Notes under the pieces: model-generated
What the model saw: the letters and a program-made list of their open reading frames with translations, nothing else
Told to the model about the DNA's origin: nothing
Database searches by the model: none
From: a virus
DNA: 29,216 bases
Virus record (IMG/VR): IMGVR_UViG_3300036770_002311
Span: 1 to 29,216 of that record
Strand: one strand, 5' to 3'
Part shown: piece by piece, positions 4,586 to 23,351 of the stretch
Layout of the letters: each line of letters opens with the position of its first letter
Numbering within the stretch: position 1 is the first letter of the stretch
Position numbers and translations under genes: made by a program

Positions 4586-5005
4586 TTACTGTGTACGATC
4601 TTTATTATCTATAGCGCCGCCGGTAACCCAACTAGTACATGATCTAGTACCGGCACATTTGAAGTGATGAAAATTGCAATAACCTAAATCGGCCTTATGT
4701 ATACTGGCCATTGCATCTACTGCTGAATCATCACCTTTGATGCCTGCTTCGATACAAGCCCACATTTTATCTGACACATCAAATGCGGCACAATTACCAC
4801 ATTTCATGGTCTTAGCGGTCTTTTCTGTGATATCCCAACGTTGGGCGGCTTGCTTCCAATAATCGCCGGGATTATCGGGATTAGCAGGCCCATAATAGTA
4901 TTCGTCTATAGCACGTTGGCGATTTTTAAGGTTGAGATCAATATCGTGGGTGGCTCTAGGACATCCACGGGCAGCGGCTTCTACAATACGTAGATACTGT
5001 CTCAT
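4586..5005 (-). CDS. Conserved phage protein with Cys cluster; possible capsid-targeting N-terminus
   Basis: 139 residues. The core has a Cys arrangement C-G-N-C-A-A-F-D ... C ... LGYC-x-F-H-H-FKC-x-G-x-R-S-C, with seven cysteines and several histidines, which looks like a metal or Fe-S site. The pattern is familiar from uncharacterised proteins of T4-like marine phages (recollection). The N-terminus MRQYLRIVEAA fits the island's shared peptide with a candidate I-V-E cleavage site at residue 9. ATG 5005 overlaps the TAA of the 53 aa gene upstream (TAATG), so the two are translationally coupled. A late-type promoter upstream of 5623 would serve the group. Function unknown; virion association is an inference from the N-terminus and promoter type. 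Confidence 0.75.
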   Translation of the reverse strand: MRQYLRIVEAAARGCPRATHDIDLNLKNRQRAIDEYYYGPANPDNPGDYWKQAAQRWDITEKTAKTMKCGNCAAFDVSDKMWACIEAGIKGDDSAVDAMASIHKADLGYCNFHHFKCAGTRSCTSWVTGGAIDNKDRTQ

Positions 5006-5166
5006 TAGTTATTGCTTTTGATGATGTGTTTATCTATGCAATCGTTGCAACTGCATTCCTTACAATCACAGCCGTCGGTGCGACATTCTATACCACAGTG
5101 ATGAAAGCAGCCACAACCACAACGGTGAGTTAATCTATGATAATCTGCATCGAGTGGGTCTTCCAT
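5005..5166 (-). CDS. Small cysteine-rich protein, 53 aa
   Basis: Direct translation from ATG 5166 gives 53 residues starting MEDPLDADYHRLTHRCGCGC and ending HIIKSNN. It contains ten cysteines, in the order CGCGC-F-H-H-C-x3-C-x4-C-x-C-x2-C-x-C-x2-C, plus several histidines, which suggests a metal-binding knuckle. The start has a good SD (AAGGAG, 6 nt away), lies 1 nt after the stop of the 151 aa gene, and the TAA overlaps the next ATG (TAATG). That tight packing, with frame conservation through 162 nt, supports a real gene despite its size. No family recognised. It could bind zinc or iron and may work with the Cys-rich protein immediately downstream. Confidence 0.7.
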   Translation of the reverse strand: MEDPLDADYHRLTHRCGCGCFHHCGIECRTDGCDCKECSCNDCIDKHIIKSNN

Positions 5167-5167
5167 A

Positions 5168-5623
5168 CTATACTCCTTGCGGGATTACAACCACATTGCT
5201 AATAGGTGTGCGTAATAGAATGTTGTCTTGTGTTCTAAAGTAAACTGCTTTTTGGCCAAAAGGTCTGTATAATTCTACGCTTTCTACTATACCACGTTGA
5301 CTCATATCCTGTGTTCGTATAAATGCACCGACCTGTACGCTTTCTGGAACACAGTTTGGTACAGTACGGCCATTCTTTTTCTTAGTGCCAATGGGATGAT
5401 AACCCTTCCAGCATGGATTGGTATTACGCAGACTCTTTTTTTCTTCTTCACCTACTAGGCGATTGCCTACAGGCGGCTTGTTCTTGCCTTTGAAGTGCCC
5501 GGTAAACTTAGGACCCGTGGCTGTTTCATTCTTGGGCTTTTTGCCAGCCTTTTTCATACTAATAGCTATGGCTGCTTGTTGAGCAGGGTTGGCAGCTTCA
5601 ACCACAAAGTCTTTAATTTTCAT
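5168..5623 (-). CDS. Probable virion/prohead protein with NPCWKGY motif
   Basis: 151 residues. The N-terminus MKIKDFVVEAANPAQQ closely resembles the T4 internal-protein targeting peptide MKTYQEFIAEA; V-V-E (residues 7-9) would be the prohead-protease site. A basic, Lys/Gly-rich segment follows, then NPCWKGYHPIGTKKKNGRTV-x-N-C-V-P-E (about residues 69-92), a motif remembered from structural proteins of T4-like marine phages, and a C-terminal beta-rich domain of about 55 residues beginning after the V-P-E. That VPE may itself be an internal cleavage point. No enzyme motif. A late promoter box AATAAATA ends only 5 nt before ATG 5623 and there is no SD. Function unknown; packaged or core protein inferred. 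Confidence 0.8.
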   Translation of the reverse strand: MKIKDFVVEAANPAQQAAIAISMKKAGKKPKNETATGPKFTGHFKGKNKPPVGNRLVGEEEKKSLRNTNPCWKGYHPIGTKKKNGRTVPNCVPESVQVGAFIRTQDMSQRGIVESVELYRPFGQKAVYFRTQDNILLRTPISNVVVIPQGV

Positions 5624-5628
5624 AAATG

Positions 5629-5636
5629 TATTTATT
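5629..5636 (-). promoter_or_regulatory. T4-type late promoter box (AATAAATA)
   Basis: Minus-strand AATAAATA matches the T4 late box TATAAATA in 7 of 8 positions. It ends 5 nt before the start codon at 5623 and lies across the end of the 43 aa gene. No SD is present between the box and the start, so any transcript would be almost leaderless. Confidence 0.5.
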
Positions 5637-5766
5637 AAGCTGTGAGAAAGATATACATAGTAGCCACACTAAAGATTACCAACATAGGAATCCATCCTAT
5701 TAGTAAACCCAATCCTATAAAAAATGCCAACCATGCTGCGTGATAAGCATGTAGGTACCAGGGCAT
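5635..5766 (-). CDS. Small membrane protein, 43 aa
   Basis: Translation from ATG 5766 gives 43 residues: MPWYLHAYHAAWLAFFIGLG, then a hydrophobic stretch LLIGWIPMLVIFSVATMYIFLTA. Nearly the whole length after residue 10 is hydrophobic, enough for one long or two short transmembrane segments with a proline turn. The ATG overlaps the TAA of the nucleotidyltransferase gene (TAATG), showing translational coupling in place of an SD. Codon and frame integrity over the whole intergenic gap support it. No family recognised; a membrane-active accessory is possible but not shown. Confidence 0.6.
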   Translation of the reverse strand: MPWYLHAYHAAWLAFFIGLGLLIGWIPMLVIFSVATMYIFLTA

Positions 5767-6458
5767 TATAAACTCAGCGCACGATCCTGCTGATCTTTAA
5801 TGGCTCGACTTAGGCGCTCAATGTATCCTAAATTCCGTAATATTTTGAAACTCAGGTTTTCAACACTGTATTCGCCACCACTGTCTAAACCACTTTGACG
5901 CATCTTGCGTAACTTAGTCATTAGTCTACGTACATCTGCAGCATCATCGGCATTTTGAATTGTTACTGTGATTTGTTTTATAAGATCTTGTACTTTATGA
6001 TTTACCGCTAAATCATCAATGCTTGGAGGTTCATAGCTGGGTTGTTTAACCCATGCATCATCTAATAAACTGTAAATGCCGCCTGATATAGGAGGTTCTT
6101 CAACATCTTCTACGTATAGTTCTACTTCATGGCCACGTACAATTACATCATGGTCATCATTCCAAATCTTTTTCTTAGCTTGATAAAACGCTTCGGCTAA
6201 ATCATCGCAGTCTAAATCACTATAACGAGTAACCACATGCACATCAAAATCGCTAAAACGTGTATAGTTAAAATTAGCCATGCTGCCTGTTAATACTACA
6301 TCTATTAATTTGAAATTAGGAATTTCTAAATATTCCACAAACATTTGTGCCGCTCGCAAGAGCTTGTATCTAACCTCACTGCGTAGATTAACACCTCTCC
6401 ATGCTTCAGGCGCTAGTTCTTTATTGTAAGCAACATTAGATTTAACGTAATTGGGCAT
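5766..6458 (-). CDS. Nucleotidyltransferase-fold protein
   Basis: 230 residues. The motif LTGSMANFNYTRFSDFDVHVV (about residues 56-76) matches the nucleotidyltransferase signature G-S-x(n)-S-D-x-D, with the two metal-binding aspartates in SDFD; a third acidic position may be in HEVELYVED (about residues 111-119). A helical C-terminal region follows. Proteins of this kind transfer a nucleotide to protein, RNA or a small molecule; the substrate cannot be told. Similar predicted nucleotidyltransferases are common in T4-like marine phages. Unlike most neighbours to its right, it lacks the MR..FxxE N-terminus. It starts only 4 nt after a late-type AATAAATA box with no SD. The 43 aa membrane protein is coupled to its stop. 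Confidence 0.85.
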   Translation of the reverse strand: MPNYVKSNVAYNKELAPEAWRGVNLRSEVRYKLLRAAQMFVEYLEIPNFKLIDVVLTGSMANFNYTRFSDFDVHVVTRYSDLDCDDLAEAFYQAKKKIWNDDHDVIVRGHEVELYVEDVEEPPISGGIYSLLDDAWVKQPSYEPPSIDDLAVNHKVQDLIKQITVTIQNADDAADVRRLMTKLRKMRQSGLDSGGEYSVENLSFKILRNLGYIERLSRAIKDQQDRALSL

Positions 6459-6462
6459 GTAG

Positions 6463-6470
6463 TATTTATT
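6463..6470 (-). promoter_or_regulatory. T4-type late promoter box (AATAAATA)
   Basis: Minus-strand AATAAATACTAC directly precedes ATG 6458, with 4 nt between box and start codon. In T4 the start of transcription is about 6 nt past the box, which would fall inside this start codon, so either the start point is shifted or the message is leaderless. Confidence 0.45.
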
Positions 6471-6472
6471 GT

Positions 6473-7315
6473 CTAGCTGGTTTTAGTTCCAATCCAGTCA
6501 TTTATCCTATGATAAAATACATTATCGGCAAAAGTATTCGGATCGGCATCACGCCAACTATACACTTTCTTTTTATCGAATCGACTGTCGCAGCAATAGT
6601 GACTAATATAGTGGTTTTGATTTATTTCGTTCACACCGGGCACATAGCAATAATCTCTGGCGGTCATACGCACATGATTATTAGCACAGGCCGCTTGTAA
6701 CGAAAACATACCCGACCACCATTTCAAATGCACCTCTGGGTGTTCTAGTACCATAGCTTTGTGTATAGATATCCAGTCATTTAAGATACGTTTGAAAGTA
6801 GCAGCATGCCCTATAACGGGAACGAAACCTCCATTGTAGGCACCGTGTCCTGATACTAAATGAGGCTCGACTACATGCCGATAATCGGTTAAACTTTTTA
6901 AGTGCCAGTTTTCATAGATATCACTGACTAACAATTCATTGGGTTCTAGAGGAATTTCCGGATGTGGACGCATATGAAACATGTCACAATCTAGAATTTC
7001 AATCACTTGATCTGGCGCGAACCTATCTATTAACTGTGCTAGTCCGATTTGTATATTCAATGGTACCAGATAAAATTCTTGATTGTTATCTTCGTTCATA
7101 TAATCATAACAACCTTCACACAACAAGTGCGGAACATCTATATCCCATTCATAAGTTTCTTGTTTGGTTTCGGTGGTATGGTTACGCTTAATCACAGCAG
7201 CCATGGCTTTGTTACGTGCTAAATCTCCGTAACATCTTTTATGATTGTACCAAAATAAATCTAATTGGAGATGAAAGCTGCCTTGATTATATACAGCGGT
7301 TGGAATTGAAATCAT
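6473..7315 (-). CDS. Predicted glycosyltransferase, GT-A type
   Basis: 280 residues. A central E-I-L-D-C-D-M-F segment (about residues 108-115) supplies the D-x-D metal/nucleotide-sugar motif, and GAYNGGFVPVIG (about 158-169) matches the N-G-G acceptor-site segment of several eukaryotic- and phage-type galactosyl/arabinosyl-transferases. A third conserved-looking region, H-L-K-W-W-S-G-M-F-S-LQAAC, follows. It would move a sugar from a nucleotide-sugar to a protein, DNA base or surface glycan; acceptor unknown. The frame starts with ATG 7315 behind a short hairpin and a late box. It ends 3 bp before the next late box. A second, different glycosyltransferase lies at 17083, so glycosylation is a theme. 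Confidence 0.7.
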   Translation of the reverse strand: MISIPTAVYNQGSFHLQLDLFWYNHKRCYGDLARNKAMAAVIKRNHTTETKQETYEWDIDVPHLLCEGCYDYMNEDNNQEFYLVPLNIQIGLAQLIDRFAPDQVIEILDCDMFHMRPHPEIPLEPNELLVSDIYENWHLKSLTDYRHVVEPHLVSGHGAYNGGFVPVIGHAATFKRILNDWISIHKAMVLEHPEVHLKWWSGMFSLQAACANNHVRMTARDYCYVPGVNEINQNHYISHYCCDSRFDKKKVYSWRDADPNTFADNVFYHRINDWIGTKTS

Positions 7316-7323
7316 TAGTTGAC

Positions 7324-7340
7324 CTGTCAGTTAATGACAG
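7324..7340 (-). other. Hairpin in the leader of the glycosyltransferase gene
   Basis: CTGTCA (7324-7329) pairs with TGACAG (7335-7340) around GTTAA. It sits between the late box and ATG 7315, so a transcript from that box would begin in or just before this hairpin. A 5' stabilising stem is a plausible role. Confidence 0.4.
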
Positions 7341-7348
7341 TATTTATT
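7341..7348 (-). promoter_or_regulatory. T4-type late promoter box (AATAAATA)
   Basis: Minus-strand AATAAATACTG, 7 of 8 to the T4 late box, placed 25 nt before ATG 7315 and just after the stop of the 589 aa gene. This spacing allows a normal leader. Confidence 0.55.
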
Positions 7349-7349
7349 G

Positions 7350-9119
7350 CTAGTCTTTACTACGACCCGATTTCATATTAGCACACCAATGATACATCTT
7401 ACCCTTTTCACCACCGTACTTTTTAGCCTTGGCTCTAAGATCTGTGACTGATCCATTGCAACTAGCACCGGACCGTTCTACACGACCAGGGCGACTCCGT
7501 CCTTTAACTTTACCATCTGCAAAGTTTTCCGCGACACCACGCCCTAGGCCATCTAGCCCAAAATTTGTAGGTGGCTGATATTGACCGCCATGTTGTTGAA
7601 TATGACTGGCTAGGTCTGCTAAATCTTTGAAGCCACGATCTTCTAGTTCTTGATCGACATCAACTAATTCTTTACCGCCCCACTTATATAGGGCCAATTC
7701 CATATGACCTACATCTTGATTCTTTTTCAATCCATTGATAACATAACCCACAATAGCGTCCCAATTCGCATCTTGCCGATCTTGGTCTAGGTCACTCATT
7801 ACACCTTCCGCCACACCTTTGTTTATTCTATTTAATTCATAGTGAACTTTATTACCAGCATCGGCCCTAAATGCTTTGAATCCCAATGCCCGAGCATAAC
7901 GCTGAACTAATCTATCGTACAAATTAGCACGACTTTGTGATTTTTGTCCGGGTTCAACTTCTTTACTAGCCGAAAAGACTACTCTTTTGGGCTTGTATTT
8001 CTTAATAAATGTTTGAATAGCACTTAATACTGTAGCAAATATTCTCTGTGCGTCACCTTCACCTGTTACTTGTTGACTGTTATTTCTATAAAATTCAACA
8101 CTCCAGGCTTCTTCTCCTTCTTCATTTGCGTCTAGGTTGAACATGATATTTAGATCATCACCATTGGGTATTTCAGCGTAGACTGTTACCTCATCCATGT
8201 CACCTGGATACCATTTGAGTCTGTAGGGTTGGTCAAAGGCTTCCGCCACACCTTCTTTGATGTTTTTCCACTTGTCGGCTAGCGAATTTACAAAGTCATC
8301 GACTGTGGCTAAGTTATTCTGCTGCATGAACTTGATGATTCTTATAGCATTATTGCGATCAGCATCTGGTCCTGGCTTGCGAGCATTGCTCAAGTCTACT
8401 GCTAGGCTTTTAGCCAAGCCTTGCTTGTCATAGGTATATTGTAAGTCATAACGCTTGCGATCGGCATCCTTACTTAATTGTGCCTTGGTCTTGGCCTGCA
8501 TGAGTTCCATCCATGGCTTTAAGTATCCACCCCGACGTCTTTCTACATAACCACGAGCAGGATCCTGCCCACGGAGTTGACTGACACCGGCCAGTTTACG
8601 TGTATCACGCTGACGCCAGGCTGCTTGGTCATTGAACAAGTTTACAGGAATACCTGCTTTTTTGGCTAAAATAATTACCTGTCTTGTACGAGCACGAGCA
8701 GCTTCGTCGGCGTCTGGTGCTATATAAAGATCTATTACTTTGATGGCAGCGGGTATAGCATTTTCCCTGCTAAAGATACGATCCTCTGCTTCATGTGCTT
8801 TGTGATGATCTTTCATGGGATCGCGATTATTCCAGTAATCTATTGCTTTACCAGGATAGCGTTGATTATAAAAGTCGCCATCAAGTTCAAATAACACAGC
8901 ATCTTGTCCAAGATAACCATGATAGCCACCGTGGCGTGTTCTAGTGGTGCTTAGGAAATATGGATAGCCCTTGGGAGCAAACTGTGCTTCCCAGCTGGTG
9001 CCTAGTGTATGACTAAGTTCAAATTGGCCTGATTGTAGGATTTTAAGTGCAGTGGTGACTCGAGTATAATGAAATACTCGGCTGCTAATACGCTCTATAA
9101 GGAATTCAGTCGCTCTCAT
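7350..9119 (-). CDS. Multidomain putative packaged protein with ADP-ribosyltransferase-like N-terminal domain
   Basis: 589 residues. N-terminus MRATEFLIER is the shared targeting-like peptide, with L-I-E at 7-9. Residues 14-135 look like an ADP-ribosyltransferase fold: FHYTR (H17, Y18), FLSTTR (55-60, the S-T-S-like strand) and EAEDR (110-114, an E-x-E arrangement). Three later segments each start with a V-A-E tripeptide (E293, E438, E531): an alpha/beta domain with VVFSASKE and SRANLYDRLVQRYARALGF (about 380-413), a helical domain with ALYKWGGKELVDVD (about 476-489), and a C-terminal basic module with GASCNGSVTDLRAKAKK and MYHWCANMKSG. The last module is remembered from structural proteins of marine T4-like phages. 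T4 also packages an ADP-ribosyltransferase (Alt). It overlaps the upstream gene by 4 nt. ART assignment is from motifs only; DarT-like or RNA 2'-phosphotransferase-like folds are alternatives. Confidence 0.65.
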   Translation of the reverse strand: MRATEFLIERISSRVFHYTRVTTALKILQSGQFELSHTLGTSWEAQFAPKGYPYFLSTTRTRHGGYHGYLGQDAVLFELDGDFYNQRYPGKAIDYWNNRDPMKDHHKAHEAEDRIFSRENAIPAAIKVIDLYIAPDADEAARARTRQVIILAKKAGIPVNLFNDQAAWRQRDTRKLAGVSQLRGQDPARGYVERRRGGYLKPWMELMQAKTKAQLSKDADRKRYDLQYTYDKQGLAKSLAVDLSNARKPGPDADRNNAIRIIKFMQQNNLATVDDFVNSLADKWKNIKEGVAEAFDQPYRLKWYPGDMDEVTVYAEIPNGDDLNIMFNLDANEEGEEAWSVEFYRNNSQQVTGEGDAQRIFATVLSAIQTFIKKYKPKRVVFSASKEVEPGQKSQSRANLYDRLVQRYARALGFKAFRADAGNKVHYELNRINKGVAEGVMSDLDQDRQDANWDAIVGYVINGLKKNQDVGHMELALYKWGGKELVDVDQELEDRGFKDLADLASHIQQHGGQYQPPTNFGLDGLGRGVAENFADGKVKGRSRPGRVERSGASCNGSVTDLRAKAKKYGGEKGKMYHWCANMKSGRSKD

Positions 9120-9919
9120 CGCATGTATTTAAGGTAATATTTGAAATTCTCGTGTCTATCTTCGATACCAGCTAAGGCAGGATTTATTCTTTTAGTCACT
9201 GCCACAGTATTGGCAAAATCCATTACACCAGGGCGAACTCGTTCAAACCAATACCATATAGCAATTTCTGCTGCTATGTCTGGTCTCGCTGCTAGGTCAG
9301 GATTCTTCAATAAGTCAATGCCCAGTGCCTGACTAGCAGCACGATAGTTATCACGACCAGTTAATTGTATGAACCCGCGACCCTTAAAACGCTCGCCATC
9401 ACCGGTTTTGACATTACCTAGTTTTTGTGCAGTGCGTGGTGCGTGTTTGGGATCATATCGCTTAAAGTAATCTTTCCCCTGTGGAACTTCTTTCATCTTC
9501 TTAAAGTCCCACGACTCATGTTCCATTTGTGCTAGAAACTGTGCTAGTTCAATACCTTTGATGCCAGACTTTTGTGCTCGTTGTGCTAGTACATTAGCTT
9601 TGGGGTTTTCTAATTTAATGGTTTTATTTTTTACCGTAGGTTTTTCTATAGGCGGTAATTGTTTTGCCGCAGGCTTTTCTGGTTCTGCTTGTTTAACAGC
9701 AGGAGCAGCCTTGGCTTGTGGCACTGGTGCAGGTGCAGTTTGTGGACGCTGTGCTGGTGCTACTTGTGCTGGAGGTATATCATAAGCAGGTCGTGGTTTT
9801 TCATATCCGGCTTTATGAGCGTAGCCTGTGGCTATGGCAGCAGCACCTAGGCCGGTGGCAAACCATTTGGGCCAGTCTTCATCTAGCTCTTGTTCAACCA
9901 CAAGTTCATGCAGTCTCAT
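9116..9919 (-). CDS. Virion-associated GH19 muralytic enzyme with targeting-like N-terminus
   Basis: 267 residues in four parts. MRLHELVVEQ is the shared N-terminal peptide (V-V-E at 7-9). Residues 17-34 (KWFATGLGAAAIATGYAH) form a short hydrophobic segment. Residues 40-100 are a Pro/Ala/Lys linker. Residues 105-267 are a glycoside hydrolase 19 (chitinase/lysozyme) domain with AQMEHES (E133 and E135, one of them the likely catalytic acid) and RFKGRGFIQLTGRDNY (177-192). The enzyme would cut peptidoglycan. A second GH19 protein without the leader and linker is in the lysis cassette, so this one is more likely carried in the particle and used on entry. ATGA overlap with the gene on either side places it in the long late operon. 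Confidence 0.85.
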   Translation of the reverse strand: MRLHELVVEQELDEDWPKWFATGLGAAAIATGYAHKAGYEKPRPAYDIPPAQVAPAQRPQTAPAPVPQAKAAPAVKQAEPEKPAAKQLPPIEKPTVKNKTIKLENPKANVLAQRAQKSGIKGIELAQFLAQMEHESWDFKKMKEVPQGKDYFKRYDPKHAPRTAQKLGNVKTGDGERFKGRGFIQLTGRDNYRAASQALGIDLLKNPDLAARPDIAAEIAIWYWFERVRPGVMDFANTVAVTKRINPALAGIEDRHENFKYYLKYMR

Positions 9920-11187
9920 TTTTTTATCACCACTGGGTTATGTCCTACTACCTTGGCGAACCATACTACAACTGGTAGGTTAGGTGTGGTTTTAACATAG
10001 GGATTTGGTTCTATTTCAATGTCAAGACCACGTGGTAGTAATATTTCTTTTTCATCTGAATCATGCACACTGACTTTATTCATGCTCAGTGCCGAGTACC
10101 CTGCTGGTACTGTAATATGTAGGATTTGATATCCATTATATACTTCCTTGACGCCTTTACTTACTACACCTATTGGATAAAGTTTTAGATTTCCTTTAGG
10201 TATATTTCGAGGTTTGTGATTATTATAGGTTGTATAGTCAAGTTTGGCAAAACTTACAGAGGCTATCATAAAATCTGTAGTTGTGCTAGTATATGCCGGT
10301 AAATGAACACGCACTGGCTTTGTGACATCAGCGTGATATTTTTCCCATATTCTGCCTGGACTTTCTGGTATCCCTGAATATACCTTGATGTTCTCTTTTA
10401 GTTGATATTGTTTTAACACATTATCAAGTCGTTGGATATGACCATATTGATCTTCGTCATGGCCTTGGTTTCTATAATGATGATGTAGGGTAGTGTTGAT
10501 TATAGCAGACCCAAGGTCGGAATAGTGTTTTAACGATCTTCGGTCTTGGTCAATGGGACCTCGGTATTGTTGGGTACGATGGATAGTGCCTGGTGACACT
10601 GCTATTTCTGGTTCAGCGGGTTGTTTTTCAGATATAGTACTTTCTGTTTTGGGCGGTTTAGTGAGGCTGTGGGTTTCAATACTGGGATAATGTTGTCCAC
10701 GCTGTGGGTGCTGTGGTGTGGCACGACGCATGATGTCCCGGCTCGGAGCATCTGATAACACAGCCTGTAAGCCAGGGTGAAGTGGACTAGGCCACGCACC
10801 ATATTCTACCCAGTCATAACCTTGTGTTTCCCAATCTAGTCGTGGCCGAAATTCCCGCTCAACTATGGCTAGAAAGTTATAGTAAGTAAATCCTGATTTA
10901 TGCTTAAACACATATAACGGTACCATTTTCATTGCACCAGTATATCCAGCTTCTTCCGCCACTTCTCTTTGAGCAGCACGAGCAGGATCTTCACCTTCAT
11001 CAATAGCACCACCCCAAGTACCCCAAGTACCAGGTTGTTCTACCTTGGAACTACGATGTGCTAAACAGAATCTACCGGTATCCCGTGCCAAGATAATACA
11101 GCCAGCACCACGACGCCCCCAAAAGCCAGTTTGTTTGAGAGCCTGCCGGTGTTCTCGGTCATCATCAAATAAATCGTCTACTCTCAT
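9916..11187 (-). CDS. NUDIX hydrolase fused to an ADP-ribosyltransferase-like domain
   Basis: 423 residues. N-terminus MRVDDLFDDD is nearly identical to that of the GNAT protein two genes upstream. Residues 25-135 are a NUDIX domain with a perfect box G60-x5-E66-x7-REVAEEAGY (74-82), expected to cleave a nucleoside diphosphate linked to X, such as ADP-ribose or NAD. A linker of about 60 residues (Pro, Thr, Ser, Gln) follows. Residues 205-400 fit an arginine-type ADP-ribosyltransferase: VYSG (269-272) at the first strand, AYTSTTTDF (298-306) for the STS strand, and DEKEILLPRG (378-387) giving the E-x-E pair at 379/381. The first-strand Arg usual in this class is Ser271 here, so activity is uncertain. 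Fusing an NAD-using with an ADP-ribose-hydrolysing domain is notable. Overlaps both neighbours by 4 nt. Confidence 0.8.
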   Translation of the reverse strand: MRVDDLFDDDREHRQALKQTGFWGRRGAGCIILARDTGRFCLAHRSSKVEQPGTWGTWGGAIDEGEDPARAAQREVAEEAGYTGAMKMVPLYVFKHKSGFTYYNFLAIVEREFRPRLDWETQGYDWVEYGAWPSPLHPGLQAVLSDAPSRDIMRRATPQHPQRGQHYPSIETHSLTKPPKTESTISEKQPAEPEIAVSPGTIHRTQQYRGPIDQDRRSLKHYSDLGSAIINTTLHHHYRNQGHDEDQYGHIQRLDNVLKQYQLKENIKVYSGIPESPGRIWEKYHADVTKPVRVHLPAYTSTTTDFMIASVSFAKLDYTTYNNHKPRNIPKGNLKLYPIGVVSKGVKEVYNGYQILHITVPAGYSALSMNKVSVHDSDEKEILLPRGLDIEIEPNPYVKTTPNLPVVVWFAKVVGHNPVVIKK

Positions 11188-13556
11188 GCCCGGTCCGGAA
11201 CAACGGTTAGTCCAAGTTGAGCATATCTACTATTTCTTTCTAACCACTGTCTGGCATGTGCGTTAGCCTCGGCTTGAGTAGTTACACCACCGAATGTGTG
11301 TATGACTTGATTTTGGTCTGTGACAATATTCCAACGACCAGTAAATTGGCCATGATCGACTCGGCTTTCCGGGGCAGATCTAGGTCTTATAGCAATAAGA
11401 TAATAAGGAGCCGATGGTGAATGTCGTATTAAACTTGCTGCTAGTCCTTGTGAAGAAAGCCAGCGAGTAAATGCGTCTTCTGCTTCCTGTCTTGTATTAC
11501 GAATAAAATAATTGATCACAGCATTATCACTGGATCTTATTATAGCAAAATTAGCATCAGGATCACTTTCTGGTGCGGTCATTGATCCGTCAAGTCTACG
11601 CTCAGGCTGTGATTGAGCATCTTGCGAATTTCGTGGATTTATGGAAATCAGATAAAAATCAACCACCCGCGCTCCGGTATGTTGAAGCCATCTAGTATAT
11701 TCTTGTACTGCTCCTTGTTGGGTACTGGCAGTAAAATACCTAATCGGAACATTGTCGGCCACTCTTATGATCGCGTAGTTAGCATCCGGCATTGACTCTG
11801 GTGCGGTCATTGATCCATCGGCACGTCGAGATCGAGAAGATTCTGGTTCAGGACTACTAGGTGTCTGATCCCCTGTGTAGGGTTTGATCACTTGTATTGT
11901 GGCTGCTGCGGCATCAAAGCGACGCCCCCATTCCGGGTAGCCTTCATAACCAATGGCCTTGGCCCAGGCATCATTGCGATTAGCGGCTACCACTTGTAGA
12001 CTAGCACTGGAACCAGGAACAGTGACATTCCAGTAATATAGTTTGCCTTCATCGGGCTTTTTGTTTACTTCGCGTTCAAGTTTGGCCTGCTTAAGGAAAC
12101 TCTTTAGTGCTGCTTTTGGCAGTGCTCCTGCCGCATACTTGGAAAAGTATTTTATAGTGTCACTGGCATTTTCTGGTGCTATGACTTTGTATAATTTCTT
12201 TGAGTATTCTTCTTTATACTTTGCAGGATCAACTGCTGCGTCTAAGGCTACTACAAAGCGATTCATAGTAGACACAATCTTGTCTAGGTCTGCGTTGAGC
12301 CAATCACCACCTGGGCTGCGAAATTCTATGTATTTTTCTTTGTTGTTTATGCTGATATACTTGCCGGTTGATCCACTGTGTATCATTTTACCGGCCAATT
12401 TGTTTAAGCCAGCCTTCATCATATCTAGTAGGCCCGGAACTTGATTGCGATTGCTTTTGGCACGCGATAAGATCTCATCCATGGCACTCTTACAATAGGT
12501 ATTGGCTGACCTGCCAAATTGTTCTAGTACATACTTGTCGCCCAGCAGCAGTGCCAATTTGACATAGTCTAGATTATCCATGTTCATGTTAGGTACACTG
12601 ACATTGATGTGTAGCCCGGTGGTACGATTAGTATAGCAGTTATTATCTCTAGCGTATTCTTTTACAGCTTCAAGATGCTGGGTCATTTGTTCTAGTGTAA
12701 GTGGAGGACTAACAAACTCTAGGCCTGTGTCACCGGGGTTATCACCATCCAAGCTACTGTCTGGCTCAACCACATAAGTATCAGGTTTACGCTTGGCACC
12801 ATGATAACTTTGGCTGTAGTCAACCTTCATATTCACATAGGCTGCGAAGTCATTGGCTACTTTGCCAACATCGGCGTCGTCATCACCAGCTAGTTCCCAA
12901 TATGGCCAAGTCACGAGATGACTGAAACTGCTTTCAATGTCAGTCATGTAGCTGTAGCTATTACGCAGAAAACGACTGAAGCCGGTTTCATGATCGGGTT
13001 CCGACTCTTCCATGGCATCATCACGAGCTAGATCGTATATCTCGTCATTATTGTTTATACTTTCGTCTCTACGATCTGCTATTAGGGTACTATATATTTC
13101 TTCGATAGCATTTTTACGATCACGCTCATCAGCAAACTTTCGATCGCCTAACTGCTCTGCGGCCTCCTGCCATAGTTCTTCGCCTAGTTCTTTTTCAACT
13201 GCTTGTTCTACATAGTATTCTTCGTTTTCTTCCCACCAGGATTGTTCTGCTTCCTGCCAGTAATCACTTTCGGCGTATTCTTGAAAGAGCTCGTCGTGTA
13301 GCCTACCTATTGATGCTCTCGAGTTGTGGTCGCTGTCAAGGAAAAAATTTTCTATTGATTGCCAACTGCGTACACGCTCATCGTTGGTATAATCGGGTTC
13401 ACTTTCGGCGTTATCGTCAGTTTCAACATTGGGCACAATCATTTCAAATTCCATGCCCACACGAGCATCAATCTTACCGGCCAACTGTTTAAGGTTGCCG
13501 GGGCTCATGTTTATTTCAAATAGTTCCTGTTCCGCTATAAAATGTCTAGCTCTCAT
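11184..13556 (-). CDS. Amidoligase-family protein with C-terminal tandem modules
   Basis: 790 residues, the second largest protein in the window. N-terminus MRARHFIAEQ contains the exact F-I-A-E of the T4 internal-protein peptide. GMEFEMIVP (34-42), TGLEFVSPPLTLEQM (277-291), TTGLHINVSV (312-321) and YISINN...YIEFRSPGGDW (400-419) match the carboxylate-amine ligase (amidoligase, glutamine-synthetase-fold) family, which makes amide or isopeptide bonds using ATP. An acidic insertion (about 85-200, many Glu/Asp/Trp) interrupts the domain. Beyond 505 come four related modules of 55-75 residues: 505-560, 578-642, 654-726 and 739-790; the middle two each begin DGSMTAPES. Overlaps the GNAT gene stop by 4 nt. 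Ligase substrate unknown; a role in prohead maturation or modification of host protein is conjecture. Confidence 0.75.
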   Translation of the reverse strand: MRARHFIAEQELFEINMSPGNLKQLAGKIDARVGMEFEMIVPNVETDDNAESEPDYTNDERVRSWQSIENFFLDSDHNSRASIGRLHDELFQEYAESDYWQEAEQSWWEENEEYYVEQAVEKELGEELWQEAAEQLGDRKFADERDRKNAIEEIYSTLIADRRDESINNNDEIYDLARDDAMEESEPDHETGFSRFLRNSYSYMTDIESSFSHLVTWPYWELAGDDDADVGKVANDFAAYVNMKVDYSQSYHGAKRKPDTYVVEPDSSLDGDNPGDTGLEFVSPPLTLEQMTQHLEAVKEYARDNNCYTNRTTGLHINVSVPNMNMDNLDYVKLALLLGDKYVLEQFGRSANTYCKSAMDEILSRAKSNRNQVPGLLDMMKAGLNKLAGKMIHSGSTGKYISINNKEKYIEFRSPGGDWLNADLDKIVSTMNRFVVALDAAVDPAKYKEEYSKKLYKVIAPENASDTIKYFSKYAAGALPKAALKSFLKQAKLEREVNKKPDEGKLYYWNVTVPGSSASLQVVAANRNDAWAKAIGYEGYPEWGRRFDAAAATIQVIKPYTGDQTPSSPEPESSRSRRADGSMTAPESMPDANYAIIRVADNVPIRYFTASTQQGAVQEYTRWLQHTGARVVDFYLISINPRNSQDAQSQPERRLDGSMTAPESDPDANFAIIRSSDNAVINYFIRNTRQEAEDAFTRWLSSQGLAASLIRHSPSAPYYLIAIRPRSAPESRVDHGQFTGRWNIVTDQNQVIHTFGGVTTQAEANAHARQWLERNSRYAQLGLTVVPDRA
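11379..11825 (-). repeat. Tandem coding repeat, period 228 bp (76 aa)
   Basis: Two in-frame copies inside the amidoligase gene encode about 70 residues each (11631-11825 and 11379-11597), both beginning with R-R-x-D-GSMTAPES and carrying DAN(Y/F)AIIR and TRWL. The nucleotide match is best in a 20-base stretch around 11573 and 11801. Copies have diverged elsewhere, so this is an old duplication. Confidence 0.75.
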
Positions 13557-14239
13557 CGTCTTACCCAGTGTGCAAACATACTAATTTCATAACTAACATC
13601 GTCATACCCATATGGTTCAATTATGGTATCTTTAATATGAGTTTCCATACGGTCAAACCCTCGGCGCACAGGAAATGCAAAAAAGTCTGTGCCGCGACTA
13701 CTACCGATATGAAATCCACCAATTTCCATTAAGTCCTGTGCCAATAAATTACCAATCTCTCGAGGAGTTTTAGTATTTAACGATCTTAAATTTATTGCAA
13801 TGTAACCCATGACTTCTACGCCAGGGATTCTACTTAAATTTACCCAGTTAGCTGCACCTCCAGCGGTTTGTACATCGTCGGCTATGAGTACCAATTTCAA
13901 ACTACGCATGGCAACTTGATACAGTGTTTGTGCTATTTTTTGACCTCTATAAGCAGGATCAACTGCTATCCCTGCCACAGATTTGGCATTTTTGCTAGGA
14001 AAGTTTACAGATTCTAAACTCATCTTGGCAGCTACCTTGCGACCTTGGGGATCTACCACATAAACATCATTAAGATTGTTTTGAAAACTTAAGAGCAGAT
14101 TTTCCCTGCCAGGAAAAGGAATACGATCGTCTAAGTATTTTCTATAATCTAGTTTAGCTAGCCAATCGCCTTTGTATAACTCTTGCGGTAATAGAATGAT
14201 TTCTTGTAATGAATCATCGAATAGTTGGTCAACACGCAC
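13553..14239 (-). CDS. GNAT-type acetyltransferase; GTG start preferred
   Basis: The frame is open from an ATG at 14335, but a GTG at 14239 is the better start: it lies 1 nt after the TAA of the upstream gene, has a CAAGGGG SD 5-6 nt upstream, avoids a 95 bp overlap, and gives the N-terminus MRVDQLFDDS, matching MRVDDLFDDD of the NUDIX protein. The resulting protein has 228 residues. VAGIAVDPAYRGQKIAQTLY (about residues 88-107) is the acetyl-CoA binding motif A of GNAT enzymes (R-G-Q-K-I-A). A following segment, IADDVQTAGGAANWVNLSRI, is remembered from phage GNAT-like proteins. It would acetylate an amine or protein; substrate unknown. Its stop overlaps the amidoligase start by 4 nt. Confidence in the fold is good, in the start moderate to high. 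Confidence 0.75.
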   Translation of the reverse strand: MRVDQLFDDSLQEIILLPQELYKGDWLAKLDYRKYLDDRIPFPGRENLLLSFQNNLNDVYVVDPQGRKVAAKMSLESVNFPSKNAKSVAGIAVDPAYRGQKIAQTLYQVAMRSLKLVLIADDVQTAGGAANWVNLSRIPGVEVMGYIAINLRSLNTKTPREIGNLLAQDLMEIGGFHIGSSRGTDFFAFPVRRGFDRMETHIKDTIIEPYGYDDVSYEISMFAHWVRR

Positions 14240-14240
14240 T

Positions 14241-14828
14241 TTAGCCCCTTGACTGCTTAGGGCCTTTGCGTTCCTTCCAACGCTTGTCTGTTGAGCACCA
14301 GTAACGACCATAGCCTTCTGTAACATCACCTGCATCTAACTTTCTTATATAACTATTAGCAGATTCTTTGCTGTCAAACGCAGGACCTACTGGATTACCC
14401 TGTGCATTTTGAATACGATAACGCACTGTTGGCACGCCATTACTGTCGCTGACAACATGCTTGGTCAACCGATAACTAGTAGGTTCAGTTTTTTGATCAG
14501 GATCGTATTCAACATCTCTTATGAGTTTTTCAGCAGGGGCATCACCTTCTTGTACACCACCAACTACATCGTTATAGTTGTCCATGCTCAATGGCTGCCC
14601 TGTTGAGCTTAAACTAACCAGCTTTTCAACTACATGATGAAGATCCATATCTGATTGAGCATCTTCTTTACTATACTCCATTATACGCAATAACAATGGT
14701 ACATCCATAGTTACAGTATCAGTGGGATTAGCGGGTTTATCTTCAGGTTGATTTTCTGCTGGTTGTGGCTTGGGTGCTTGATCTTCTTGTATTGAATCAT
14801 GTTTAGCAAAAATATCAAATATTCTCAT
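14241..14828 (-). CDS. Putative packaged/core protein with targeting-like N-terminus, 195 aa
   Basis: N-terminus MRIFDIFAKHDSIQED has the island's F-D-I-F form, with a candidate I-Q-E site at about residue 15. A disordered, Pro/Glu/Asn-rich stretch (17-38) follows. Residues 40-90 form a helical block containing VPLLLRIMEYSKEDAQSD, remembered from uncharacterised T4-like phage proteins. G-V-Q-E-G (about 92-96) and D-V-T-E-G (about 172-176) are further V-x-E-G sites flanking a compact C-terminal tail YGRYWCSTDKRW. No enzyme motif. Start ATG 14828 follows the stop of the upstream gene by 2 nt. Function unknown; the repeated V-x-E-G junctions suggest proteolytic processing, which is inference. 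Confidence 0.7.
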   Translation of the reverse strand: MRIFDIFAKHDSIQEDQAPKPQPAENQPEDKPANPTDTVTMDVPLLLRIMEYSKEDAQSDMDLHHVVEKLVSLSSTGQPLSMDNYNDVVGGVQEGDAPAEKLIRDVEYDPDQKTEPTSYRLTKHVVSDSNGVPTVRYRIQNAQGNPVGPAFDSKESANSYIRKLDAGDVTEGYGRYWCSTDKRWKERKGPKQSRG

Positions 14829-14830
14829 GA

Positions 14831-15850
14831 CTATTTCCTTTGCATGACCTTAGCCAACAATTCTGCAAAACTTTTACTGACATTAGGATCGTTTAATTTT
14901 GTTGCTATATCTTTTTCCAAATTAACTGCATCTTGTGCTGTCATTGGTTGCTGTGGTTGTTGCTGTTGAGTTCCTGCTTGATTAGAACTTATAGAAACAT
15001 TAGCAGCTGGACTAACTGGAGCTACTGCTTGTTGTGTCTGTGCTCCTGGTGCCGGCTTAGGGGGTTGTCCGGGTTTAGTCATGCCAGTGGTAGGCATAAT
15101 AGGACCAACTTCATTTAGTTCATGTGTAAAAAATTCTAATATACTGCTAGCAGCATCTTCATAGTCTAAACCCGACTCCATTAATCCTATCATGGTCCGC
15201 TGTACGGCTATACGATCTTTATGACCGGCACCGCCGTAGATGTCGCGACCCTCCACTAGGTCTTTTACAGTGATTAACCCGTTAACAATACGCATTTTTA
15301 ACCATAGATCAATGTTTTCTGCTACACTTTCGAACCCAATGCCGCCACCTTGTTGTTTAATCATGGATTTAACACGAGCGATTTCTTGTTCTAATGCATG
15401 TTGCTTGACCCAATACCCATGGTCATCACTTAGTTTATACTTAGGATCAAATTGTGATTCTAAATGTTGTAATTTCAACTTAAGATTACTAACATCTACT
15501 GGGATCTCGTGTTGAACAGGTGCAGCAGTGGATTTAAGATTAGCTTGACGATCTGACTTAAATTGGTTAGCTAATGATTTAACTTGTCCTGCTAGACCGG
15601 GCTGTGTTTCTCCAACTACTGGAGCACCATTCTTAACCATGTGTCTTAGTTCGGCACGAGCAGTATTTACAGCATCTTGCATGGATTCTTCGTGACTCCA
15701 TGTATCTTCAGGAAGCTCTTGCCCATTGGCATAGTATTTGACCAGGAATTCATCCCACTCTGTGTTTTTGTAAACCACAGCAGTATGCTGGTTATCGCCA
15801 CCTTCAATGGTGCCCACACGACGCAGAGCAGATTCGTTAATATGATTCAT
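14831..15850 (-). CDS. Putative prohead-core or packaged protein, 339 aa
   Basis: N-terminus MNHINESALRRV has an I-N-E at 4-6, a weaker fit to the shared peptide. Residues 20-75 form a small alpha/beta domain with YKNTEWDEFLVKYYANG. A candidate V-V-G-E site (about 77-80) precedes a charged helical stretch with coiled-coil character (85-165). E-S-V-A-E-N marks the start of a helical domain with GRDIYGGAGHKDRIAVQRTM (about 205-224). E-L-N-E precedes a Pro/Gln/Ala-rich linker of about 65 residues, and the last 45 residues are helical. The modular, low-complexity make-up suits an internal or scaffold component. No enzymatic signature. It starts 1 nt after the stop of the 177 aa gene. Confidence 0.7.
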   Translation of the reverse strand: MNHINESALRRVGTIEGGDNQHTAVVYKNTEWDEFLVKYYANGQELPEDTWSHEESMQDAVNTARAELRHMVKNGAPVVGETQPGLAGQVKSLANQFKSDRQANLKSTAAPVQHEIPVDVSNLKLKLQHLESQFDPKYKLSDDHGYWVKQHALEQEIARVKSMIKQQGGGIGFESVAENIDLWLKMRIVNGLITVKDLVEGRDIYGGAGHKDRIAVQRTMIGLMESGLDYEDAASSILEFFTHELNEVGPIMPTTGMTKPGQPPKPAPGAQTQQAVAPVSPAANVSISSNQAGTQQQQPQQPMTAQDAVNLEKDIATKLNDPNVSKSFAELLAKVMQRK

Positions 15851-15851
15851 A

Positions 15852-16385
15852 TTATCGTTTCTGGTTAAGTTGACCTAATGTCTGCGAACTAGATTTATGT
15901 TGCTGGCTACGTTCTACATCGCCCATAGTGGCTGGGCGCTCACCGTCGGCTTTACGAAAATACGCTGGTGTTTTTAATTTCTTGCGTGCTTGGTCCCCAC
16001 TTTTTACAGGATCGTATTCTTCTTCTTTCATGCGGCGTCGAACAAACGGTTTACTAACAGTGGCCACTGATCCTGCTCCGGTTGCACCGCCACTGGCAGT
16101 TTCGCCCATCATTGGTGCTGGCTGGCTGACCTTGTTCATTACTTCGTATTCCATCCATTCCTTGACTTGACGAAGATAATCATTAGCTAGTGTGATTTTT
16201 TCTTGTACCCACCCTTCAAGGCCTTGGCGCTCTGTGATGTGTCTTAGCATACGATGCAGCTCAATGGCGTTACTGGCTGCATTATAGCACTGTTCACGAG
16301 CCATTTGAATTTCGTGATCATCGTGCATTTCTACTACAGCTTGCACAATGTTATGGTTTTCGGTTATAAAATCGGTGGGTTTCAT
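15852..16385 (-). CDS. Helical protein with targeting-like N-terminus, 177 aa
   Basis: N-terminus MKPTDFITENHNIVQ is one of the closest matches to the T4 internal-protein peptide (F-I-T-E at 6-9). The following helical region with EMHDDHEIQMAREQCYNAA and LEGWVQEKITLANDYL is remembered as a recurrent uncharacterised module in T4-like marine phages. An M-M-G-E (about 94-97) precedes a Gly/Ala linker; V-V-G-E in the next gene occupies a comparable place. The tail is basic and polar. First gene of the long operon that runs to 7350; a late box CATAAATA lies 24 nt upstream of ATG 16385 with only a weak GGA-type SD. Function unknown. Confidence 0.75.
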   Translation of the reverse strand: MKPTDFITENHNIVQAVVEMHDDHEIQMAREQCYNAASNAIELHRMLRHITERQGLEGWVQEKITLANDYLRQVKEWMEYEVMNKVSQPAPMMGETASGGATGAGSVATVSKPFVRRRMKEEEYDPVKSGDQARKKLKTPAYFRKADGERPATMGDVERSQQHKSSSQTLGQLNQKR

Positions 16386-16409
16386 AGCAGTCCAGTTAAT
16401 AATATGTTA

Positions 16410-16417
16410 TATTTATG
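16410..16417 (-). promoter_or_regulatory. T4-type late promoter box (CATAAATA)
   Basis: Minus-strand CATAAATA, 7 of 8 to the T4 late box, 24 nt before the ATG at 16385. It overlaps the 3' end of the cytidylyltransferase-fold gene. It could drive the nine-gene run 16385 to 7350, whose genes overlap or abut without other promoters. Confidence 0.55.
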
Positions 16418-17033
16418 CTGTGATCTTTTGTTGCATGATTCTAAACACATCCTCATCGAAAGCACCAAACAGATCTTTGACTAATGCACGTTGAGTCTGC
16501 TCGTCGGCCGCAGCAAATTGTGCTCTAAATTCACTAGCACTACGCATGGGTTTACCTAGTACAGTGAAATTAAAAGTAGGCACAGTCATAATATAACCAT
16601 GCTCGCTCATTGGCCTAAGGTCTGCAAGTTTATTAGGTACAGGTTGAAAATATCCAGGACTGCCGTCCTTTTTGGTCCATTTACCAAAGCGTGGATCTTC
16701 GGCCATGTCCTTTTCACTTACGGCAAAAATAAGTTTTGTCTCTGGAGGATAGTTTACAGTAAGCTCGTGTGCTTTATAAGGATCACGAGTTTCTACCACA
16801 CGGTCTAACGGAACCCCGGTTAAACGCATAAAGGCAGTTTTTTCACCAAACCCAAATGGGCTTTTTGGTGGCTCAACCTTGTTACTGGTAGCGATAAACA
16901 CATTATCTCTACCAAATTTTTTAACTAAAAAATCATATACAGCACGATGACCTTTGTGGAATGGTTGAAATCGTCCTGGGTATATGACCAATGGGCTAGA
17001 GGAAACTGCTTCAAATAATTCAGTAAGGAACAT
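16413..17033 (-). CDS. NMN adenylyltransferase-like (cytidylyltransferase-fold) protein
   Basis: 206 residues. VIYPGRFQPFHKGHRAV (17-33) carries the nucleotidyl-transferase H-x-G-H motif (H26, H29), and MRSASEFR (163-170) is the C-terminal S-x-S/T-x-x-R-type loop that binds triphosphate. Together these define the NadM/NMNAT/phosphopantetheine-adenylyltransferase superfamily; the GRFQPFHKGH spelling favours the NadM/NadR NMN adenylyltransferase branch, which makes NAD from NMN and ATP. N-terminus MFLTELFEAVSSS fits the island peptide with L-F-E at 6-8. A late box TATAAATA (8 of 8) ends 7 nt before ATG 17033, immediately after a terminator. Substrate is not proven; other nucleotidyl transfers are possible. 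Confidence 0.8.
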   Translation of the reverse strand: MFLTELFEAVSSSPLVIYPGRFQPFHKGHRAVYDFLVKKFGRDNVFIATSNKVEPPKSPFGFGEKTAFMRLTGVPLDRVVETRDPYKAHELTVNYPPETKLIFAVSEKDMAEDPRFGKWTKKDGSPGYFQPVPNKLADLRPMSEHGYIMTVPTFNFTVLGKPMRSASEFRAQFAAADEQTQRALVKDLFGAFDEDVFRIMQQKITA

Positions 17034-22727: not shown

Positions 22728-23351
22728 TTATAGACCCATCACATGCAAGGCATGTTGATAGTGTTTGATACGATCATCTAGCCCTAGTGTACCACCATTG
22801 ATACGCTTGGTTAGTGTCAACATATCACCTTTGTCAGCCCATTGGTTTAATTTATTGGTTTCCCAAAACCAGCAGGCTGATTGTACTGCACCTTCAAATG
22901 TAGCTAGATAAGCAGGTATGTCATTGATATCAGTTTCGATGCTGTCAGCAAAGTTTTGATAGTTATTGCGTCCAGTTAATTGGATTAGGCCACGACCACA
23001 AAATCTCCAACCATCTCCGGATTCTTCTGGACCATTGCCCATGCGATTGGCATAAGCACGATTGGCAATTTTTTCTTCATTGCCTGCATATTGATTGGCT
23101 ATGTCCATGTTAGGGAAATACTTGGGCCATACTTTAGTCAAGCTGGCAGCACGATATTTTAGATTTTCTTTTAGGAACTTAAAGTTACCTGACTCATGCC
23201 CACACTGGGCCATAAATGCTGCCACTCGTTGTGGTGTATTAATATCATAGTCGGGCAAGCATCTTTCCATGGCTGAGTGCCAATAATCCACATAGGGATT
23301 ACCGGGAATGAGTTGGGCTAGTTGCTCTTTGGTTAGAATAAAATTACTCAT
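22728..23351 (-). CDS. Endolysin, GH19 chitinase-like muramidase
   Basis: 207 residues, a single glycoside hydrolase 19 domain. MAQCGHESGNFKFL (about 47-60) carries the catalytic glutamate E53, and RFCGRGLIQLTGRNNY (116-131) is the family signature. It has no signal peptide or transmembrane helix, so release depends on the holin next to it. It overlaps the upstream o-spanin-like gene by 4 nt and is followed by holin. It shares the fold with the 9116-9919 protein but lacks that protein's targeting-like leader, hydrophobic segment and linker. Confidence 0.93.
   Translation of the reverse strand: MSNFILTKEQLAQLIPGNPYVDYWHSAMERCLPDYDINTPQRVAAFMAQCGHESGNFKFLKENLKYRAASLTKVWPKYFPNMDIANQYAGNEEKIANRAYANRMGNGPEESGDGWRFCGRGLIQLTGRNNYQNFADSIETDINDIPAYLATFEGAVQSACWFWETNKLNQWADKGDMLTLTKRINGGTLGLDDRIKHYQHALHVMGL

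What the first reader, a model, noticed from the sequence alone, without database searches (positions are those of the whole stretch)
4586..17033. Shared capsid-targeting-like N-terminus on a run of unrelated late enzymes
Seen: proteins at 4586, 5168, 7350, 9116, 9916, 11184, 13553 (from its GTG), 14241, 15852 and 16413 begin with a variant of M-[RK]-x-x-[DEH]-[FL]-[VILF]-x-[ED] (MRQYLRIVEA, MKIKDFVVEA, MRATEFLIER, MRLHELVVEQ, MRVDDLFDDD, MRARHFIAEQ, MRVDQLFDDS, MRIFDIFAKH, MKPTDFITEN, MFLTELFEAV); 14831 has a weaker form. Known: T4 internal proteins carry MKTYQEFIAEA, which directs them into the prohead core and is cut by gp21 at (L/I)-x-E. Inference: the island encodes packaged proteins, possibly injected effectors: ADP-ribosyltransferase-like, muralytic, NUDIX, amidoligase, GNAT and NMNAT-like. 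Replication, chaperone and lysis genes here lack the peptide.
Basis: partly seen in the sequence, partly recalled or inferred. Interest (0 to 1): 0.88.

Follow-up and report, generated by a model that had tools for sequence, protein, structure and literature searches.

The report
Phage cargo enzymes with head-targeting tags
A large T4-related aquatic phage carries a block of unrelated enzymes that all start with the same short peptide T4 uses to load proteins into its head, and many of the domains are joined by the short sequence that T4-type head proteases cut, so the phage probably packages, trims and delivers a swappable enzyme cargo.

Summary
All ten N-termini are at the stated coordinates. 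Patterns derived from T4 head proteins match 7 of 14 genes in the island and 0 of 22 elsewhere in the window (p = 4e-4), and 99/318 against 35/1747 genes in relatives. T4 itself has the two peptide types seen here: IP-type (MKTYQEFIAE|A) and Alt-type (MELITE|LFDED). The window's NUDIX–ADP-ribosyltransferase has an Alt-type start and shares Alt's Pfam family. Relatives encode a gp21-type protease (Peptidase_S77), a capsid protein keeping an LxE maturation site, and a small portal-adjacent protein with the same N-terminus. In cyanophages the CTS-bearing cytidylyltransferase (T4-GC190) was found in purified S-SM1 virions (PMC3037559). Best explanation: capsid-targeting sequences on packaged cargo. 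A new layer appeared. Domains after the peptide in one protein sit inside others, and at least four unrelated domains are preceded by [VILM]-x-E in both places (E at P1 in 104/106 contexts for one). This suggests protease-cut polyprotein cargo. A frequent junction, GVAEG, is also conserved as DNA (CAAGGTGTGGCGGAAGG, 156/156 in frame), perhaps a recombination linker. No virion data exist for this phage. Cleavage and injection are inferred.

The parts
16413..17033 (-). Cytidylyltransferase/NMNAT-like enzyme with Alt-type CTS MFLTE|LFEAV
   Evidence: Sequence; PF01467 4e-7; weak homologue T4-GC190 (26% over 98 aa, E 6e-4; same Pfam) of cyanophage S-SM1 starts MKKFSAFLNEA and was found in the virion (PMC3037559); late-promoter-like TATAAATA 14 nt upstream
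15852..16385 (-). Unknown protein, IP-type CTS MKPTDFITE|N; orthologue present in nearly every relative with the same N-terminus
   Evidence: 13 of 13 members of its cluster keep the motif
14831..15850 (-). Unknown protein, weak short CTS MNHINE|S
   Evidence: Sequence; resembles Alt cut at ITE-6 (PMC5694885); inference
14241..14828 (-). Unknown protein, Alt-type start MRIFDIFAKH; C-terminal GRYWCSTDKRWKxRKGPKQ module preceded by VTE|G
   Evidence: orthologues MRVHDLF, MRVFDLF, MRVNDLF
13553..14239 (-). GNAT-like acetyltransferase from internal GTG, Alt-type start MRVDQLFDDS
   Evidence: PF00583 7e-5; orthologue in L011 begins at the same GTG
11184..13556 (-). Amidoligase-like protein, IP-type CTS MRARHFIAE|Q
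   Evidence: phrog_2443 2e-5; the Atu_ph07 homologue lies next to the portal gene
9916..11187 (-). NUDIX + ADP-ribosyltransferase fusion, Alt-type start MRVDDLFDDD (Asp at the cut position)
   Evidence: PF00293 7e-16 and PF03496 1e-11; T4 Alt is also PF03496 with MELITELFDED
10627..10635 (-). Candidate protease site TISE|K in the NUDIX-ART linker
   Evidence: inference
9116..9919 (-). GH19 muralytic enzyme with IP-type CTS MRLHELVVE|Q
   Evidence: PF00182 1e-13; the paralogue 22728-23351 lacks the CTS
7350..9119 (-). Multidomain protein with IP-type CTS MRATEFLIE|R and three internal GVAE junctions
   Evidence: AlphaFold model has pLDDT <50 at residues 1-10, 290-316, 432-444 and 518-542, covering the CTS and all three junctions
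8241..8252 (-). Internal junction GVAE|AFDQPYRLKW; the same module follows a CTS directly in L019
7806..7817 (-). Internal junction GVAE|GVMSDLDQD
7527..7538 (-). Internal junction GVAE|NFADGK; the same module follows a CTS directly in L003 and G009
5168..5623 (-). Unknown protein, IP-type CTS MKIKDFVVE|AANPAQQAAIA, with a CWKG...VPNC module
4586..5005 (-). Unknown protein, CTS-like MRQYLRIVE|A; the module occurs internally in L064 after TNE|A
22728..23351 (-). GH19 endolysin paralogue without CTS (control, lysis cassette)

Best explanation
The island encodes cargo of the phage head. The first 5-10 residues of each protein are a capsid-targeting sequence of the T4 type: a hydrophobic pair preceded by polar residues docks the protein in the prohead core. 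A gp21-type serine protease then removes the peptide after [VILM]-x-E during head maturation. The enzymes (ADP-ribosyltransferase with NUDIX, GH19 muralytic enzyme, GNAT, cytidylyltransferase, amidoligase-like) would leave with the DNA and act on the host at the start of infection. Domains joined within one protein are linked by the same cut motif, so one targeting peptide may carry several domains that the protease later separates. Shown: the N-terminal motif and its restriction to the island; the same motif on T4 head and internal proteins; an S77 protease, an LxE capsid maturation site and a core-position protein with the motif in relatives; the shared junction motif; domain swapping. Inferred: targeting, cutting, packaging and injection in this phage.
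For: The motif is enriched in the island and absent elsewhere. T4 control: the T4-derived pattern picks ipII, ipIII, gp21, gp22, gp24 and alt, plus 61.1 and a few likely chance hits. S77 protease found in relatives G001 and G005, whose DNA polymerase is 79% identical to the window's, and in three larger contigs carrying the same modules. Portal-adjacent small protein MFITEFF (G001, G005), MLLNEFI (G014), MKLTELF (Atu_ph07), and a CTS-like 73-aa protein right after the G014 capsid gene. Capsid protein LxE column aligns with T4 E65. Cyanophage cytidylyltransferase with CTS seen in virions (PMC3037559). Junction motif [VILM]xE before four unrelated modules: internal contexts 60/86, 8/11, 7/8 and 7/8; CTS contexts 13/14, 5/6 and 6/6. 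ORFs chosen only by an internal GVAEG linker have a CTS start in 19 of 72 cases against 2% background. Low-confidence model segments fall on the CTS and all three GVAE sites. Paralogue control for GH19.
Against: No particle proteomics for this phage or its close relatives. The window is a fragment without head genes or protease. The island lies between replication-type genes, not next to the head cluster. Some island genes lack the peptide. GVAEG junctions are conserved at DNA level with disfavoured codons, so part of the junction signal may reflect recombination. General [LIV]xE[AGNS] sites are not enriched overall inside island proteins (1.0-fold); only module boundaries are. The window cytidylyltransferase and T4-GC190 are only 26% identical over 98 residues (E = 6e-4). 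The published Atu_ph07 virion list could not be read, so that test was not made.
Confidence: 0.82

Rival explanations
1. The N-terminal peptide targets the proteins to the head, but internal [VILM]xE junctions are not cut; they are recombination or fusion scars between modules and the proteins act as intact multidomain enzymes.
For: GVAEG is conserved as DNA (GGTGTGGCGGAA in 66 of 120 contexts, GCG 76% against 7% background), as expected of a recombination linker.
Against: Most junctions are not GVAE yet keep P3 hydrophobic and P1 Glu while P2 and P4 upward vary; a scar of a former CTS would also keep the upstream MR..EF residues. T4 Alt is cut at an internal LTE-619 (PMC5694885). The junctions fall in predicted disordered segments in the one protein modelled.
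Confidence: 0.35
2. The shared start is a translation or mRNA signal (for example set by ATGA stop-start overlaps), not a protein signal.
For: Several genes overlap by ATGA, which forces a second codon beginning with A; AAA and AGA dominate the second codon.
Against: Positions 5-10 are conserved as amino acids. Glu (36 GAA, 4 GAG) and Phe (28 TTT, 4 TTC) codons follow roughly background usage. The same residues recur internally far from any start. T4 head proteins share them.
Confidence: 0.04
3. The peptide docks these enzymes to another virion part or assembly site (tail, neck, host membrane) rather than the head core.
For: No direct localisation data; muralytic enzymes are often tail-associated (general knowledge).
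Against: The peptide matches head proteins in T4, not tail proteins, and in relatives a portal-adjacent core-position protein and a post-capsid protein.
Confidence: 0.08
4. Recent duplication and gene conversion spread one 5' end over neighbouring genes without function.
For: Neighbouring starts can be nearly identical (L047: MRANEFIVE, MRAQEFLTE, MRAQEFIAE, MRFHEFIAE).
Against: Starts stay conserved across relatives whose island genes are shuffled and diverged, and in T4 and cyanophages; two distinct classes exist.
Confidence: 0.03

Closest known systems
T4 internal proteins IPI-IPIII and their capsid-targeting sequence (Mullaney and Black 1996, via PMC9026906)
   Same: About 10 N-terminal residues, hydrophobic pair, E at the cut position, S77-type protease in relatives, unrelated proteins sharing the peptide, cargo that differs between related phages
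   Different: T4 carries only a few such proteins; here up to about ten enzymes in one run with large multidomain proteins, and domain junctions that resemble the cut site
T4 Alt ADP-ribosyltransferase
   Same: Alt-type start (MELITELFDED and MRVDDLFDDD) and the same Pfam ART family PF03496
   Different: Window protein is a NUDIX-ART fusion with little other similarity (E 0.002) and Asp at the cut position
Cyanophage virion cytidylyltransferase T4-GC190 (S-SM1, PMC3037559)
   Same: CTS-like start plus PF01467 domain; detected in virions
   Different: 26% identity over 98 residues; long linker between CTS and enzyme in cyanophages
Phage P1 DarB/Dar system and polyvalent proteins (PMC9024508, PMC5512222)
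   Same: Multidomain effectors packaged in heads and delivered with DNA; N-terminal packaging signal
   Different: P1 shows no consensus among Dar N-termini; polyvalent proteins were described without a shared short N-terminal tag or [VILM]xE domain junctions
phiKZ/SPN3US inner-body and head proteins (PMC5694885)
   Same: Head protease trims many ejected proteins at x-x-E motifs
   Different: Long propeptides, S/A/G-x-E or A-x-E specificity, different phage lineage

Membership tests
T4-type capsid-targeting sequence (CTS) proteins | Short N-terminal peptide with hydrophobic pair and E at the cut position, shared by otherwise unrelated proteins | tested here: met
T4-type capsid-targeting sequence (CTS) proteins | Peptide absent from non-virion (replication, chaperone, lysis) proteins of the same phage | tested here: met
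   0 of 22 in the window; GH19 paralogue control
T4-type capsid-targeting sequence (CTS) proteins | Phage encodes a gp21-type S77 prohead protease with [LI]xE specificity | tested here: inconclusive
   Absent from the fragment; present in relatives G001 and G005 with LxE capsid sites; specificity itself not measured
T4-type capsid-targeting sequence (CTS) proteins | Protein present inside the virion, N-terminally processed | not testable with these tools
   Indirect only: T4-GC190 in S-SM1 virions (PMC3037559)
T4-type capsid-targeting sequence (CTS) proteins | Peptide sufficient to carry a foreign protein into heads | not testable with these tools
   Needs experiment
T4 Alt family | PF03496 ADP-ribosyltransferase domain with Alt-type N-terminus | tested here: met
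T4 Alt family | Full-length similarity to Alt | tested here: not met
   Only a 48-residue match, E 0.002; it shares the ART domain but is not filed as an Alt orthologue
Polyvalent proteins (Iyer 2017) | Multidomain effector proteins with shuffled domains encoded by phages | tested here: met
   Domain shuffling
Polyvalent proteins (Iyer 2017) | Signature domains such as zincin-like MPTase or PBECR | not tested
   A TLAHELVHH motif occurs in relatives but was not assigned

The most novel reading that the evidence does not exclude
Large aquatic T4-related phages carry a polyprotein cargo system: one capsid-targeting peptide brings a chain of exchangeable effector domains into the head, the maturation protease cuts it at [VILM]xE between domains, and a translated DNA repeat (CAAGGTGTGGCGGAAGG, read as QGVAEG) serves both as cut site and as the recombination joint through which domains are swapped.
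Probability: 0.4. Interest if true: 0.9.

Novelty: new variant of a known kind. Interest (0 to 1): 0.77.

Why it matters
T4 internal proteins have long been a curiosity of a few phages. Here the same peptide marks a large and changing set of enzymes across abundant uncultured phages, so packaged cargo can be predicted from sequence. It would point to which 'hypothetical' phage proteins act in the first minutes of infection, offers natural parts for protein delivery into bacteria, and raises the testable idea that phage heads process polyproteins.

Tried and rejected
S77 search on the fragment itself: nothing, uninformative because the fragment has no head genes. PHROG and Pfam scans gave no function for 4586, 14241 and 15852. 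The GVAEG linker was first taken as pure protein-level selection; codon counts showed DNA-level conservation, so it was kept apart from the other junctions. A translation-signal reading was rejected because codons at the motif follow background. AlphaFold of the NUDIX-ART protein failed (mean pLDDT 37) and no fold search was run. The NFADG module has no match in cultured phages. The count of ATAAATA boxes is not above chance; only their positions are notable. A strict CTS pattern in Atu_ph07 found almost nothing beyond the portal-adjacent protein; its virion list is in a supplement that could not be read. General [LIV]xE[AGNS] sites are not enriched inside island proteins, so only boundary-placed sites count.
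Full report
What was checked. The window is a whole 29,216-base IMG/VR fragment. The GNAT-like gene carries its motif at an internal GTG (14239); the orthologue in locus L011 also starts at a GTG there. Patterns taken from T4 head proteins, not from this window, match 7 of 14 island genes and none of 22 others (p = 4e-4). Across 76 related contigs they match 99 of 318 island genes and 35 of 1747 others, and 15 of 59 island clusters against 11 of 537 other clusters after collapsing homologues (p = 5e-10).

What phage this is. The family B DNA polymerase is closest to Sinorhizobium phage Phosso, Agrobacterium phage Atu_ph07 and the RaK2/GAP32 jumbo myoviruses. IMG/VR holds hundreds of closer relatives. 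In relatives the slot between the 17083 gene and the small gene next to DNA polymerase (3545) holds a changing set of proteins, many starting with the same kind of peptide.

T4 comparison. In T4 (NC_000866) the pattern picks ipII and ipIII (MKTYQEFIAEA), gp21 (MNEPQLLIE), gp22 (MLKEQLIAE), gp24 (MAKINELLRE), alt (MELITELFDED), 61.1 and two likely chance hits. Internal-Met controls give under 1%. The literature states that ten residues of IPIII suffice for targeting, residues 4 and 7 matter for targeting and 8 and 10 for processing, and Asp at 10 blocks processing but not targeting (PMC9026906); Alt is cut at ITE-6 and again at LTE-619 (PMC5694885). The window has both types: IP-type MKIKDFVVE, MRATEFLIE, MRLHELVVE, MRARHFIAE, MKPTDFITE; Alt-type MFLTELFEA, MRVDDLFDDD, MRVDQLFDDS, MRIFDIFAK. 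The Alt-type NUDIX-ART protein shares Pfam PF03496 with Alt, though the proteins align only over 48 residues.

Protease and head genes in relatives. Peptidase_S77 is found in G001 and G005 (E 6e-25 and 3e-25; DNA polymerase 79% identical to the window's) and in three larger contigs carrying the same modules (G014, G015, G017). Around it lie portal, core and capsid genes. The small portal-adjacent protein begins MFITEFF (G001, G005), MLLNEFI (G014) or MKLTELF (Atu_ph07), and a CTS-like 73-residue protein follows the G014 capsid gene. The capsid proteins keep L-x-E in the column of T4 Glu65 (G001 NLAE|T, G014 HLAE|A, G015 YLSE|S, T4 FLTE|A).

Independent virion evidence. Purified S-SM1 cyanophage contained a putative cytidylyltransferase, T4-GC190 (PMC3037559). 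That protein begins MKKFSAFLNEA; homologues begin MKSFFQFLSEA (S-SM2), MKNFHQFITEA (S-SRM01) and MKSFTSFFTEA (P-TIM68). It shares PF01467 with the window's 16413 protein, at 26% identity over 98 residues. Among ORFs scanned over about 164 kb of S-SM1, the IP-type pattern matched six; the three that are annotated genes on the coding strand are gp5, gp21 and this protein, and the paper names all three as detected.

Domain shuffling and junctions. Domains that follow the peptide in one protein sit inside others, and homology begins right after the Glu. A scan of IMG/VR for the module FADGKxPGRKG, with nothing upstream specified, gave 106 distinct upstream contexts: Glu precedes the module Asn in 104 and position P3 is V, I, L or M in 77. 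Excluding CTS contexts, [VILM]xE precedes this module in 60 of 86 cases, AANPAQQAAIA in 8 of 11, xWSxKYKxSINC in 7 of 8 and GYGRYWCST in 7 of 8, while P2 and the residues upstream vary. In the AlphaFold model of the 7350 protein the N-terminal CTS and all three GVAE junctions lie in segments with pLDDT below 50. This is what protease sites between folded domains would look like, but no cut has been seen.

A complication. GVAE is enriched 6.7-fold in island proteins and is conserved as DNA: GGTGTGGCGGAA in 66 of 120 contexts with disfavoured GTG and GCG codons; the core occurs 88 times against 2.4 expected, 85 in the GVAE frame. A 17-base pattern hit at least 120 IMG/VR stretches, 156 of 156 copies in frame; of 72 ORFs picked this way 19 start with a CTS at the first ATG. 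A translated recombination linker is the simplest reading, so GVAEG alone does not prove proteolysis.

Mechanism and confidence. Most likely the peptide loads these enzymes into the prohead core, the S77 protease trims them, and they are ejected with DNA (0.82 for head targeting; about 0.55 for cleavage at internal junctions; about 0.6 for injection). The Asp-ending starts are predicted to be targeted but uncut.

Relation to the known. Capsid targeting by a short N-terminal peptide is known from T4 and, without a shared consensus, from P1 (PMC9024508). Packaging of ART and Nudix proteins in myovirus heads was predicted earlier (PMC9503650). New here, as far as the searched literature shows, are the number and variety of CTS-bearing enzymes in one phage, their spread in uncultured aquatic phages, and the shared [VILM]xE junction linking CTS and domain boundaries.

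Noticed in passing
window 7527-8252 and L351-L465: The QGVAEG linker is conserved at nucleotide level (CAAGGTGTGGCGGAAGG), always in one frame, in at least 120 IMG/VR stretches; possible translated recombination linker.
   Followed up: partly
window 5635, 6469, 7347, 16416, 17047, 25327, 25337, 26726: T4-late-promoter-like ATAAATA boxes, all nine in the window on the minus (coding) strand, eight within 35 nt upstream of a gene start.
   Followed up: partly
window 9116-9919 and 22728-23351: Two GH19 muralytic paralogues (33% identity), one with CTS and one in a lysis-like cassette without it.
   Followed up: yes
window 9916-11187: NUDIX fused to an ADP-ribosyltransferase domain; PMC9503650 describes phage Nudix domains as typically standalone.
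   Followed up: partly
L001:19491-20993 (Atu_ph07): The amidoligase-like homologue of window 11184 lies close to the portal gene in Atu_ph07.
   Followed up: no
window 5005-5166: 53-residue Cys/His-rich protein (RCGCGCFHHC) in the island, without CTS, very similar in relatives.
   Followed up: no
L155, L175, L194, L209, L235, L254, L256, L265, L270: Proteins with glycine-rich GYAGYSGDSG-type stretches directly before the ENFADG module.
   Followed up: no
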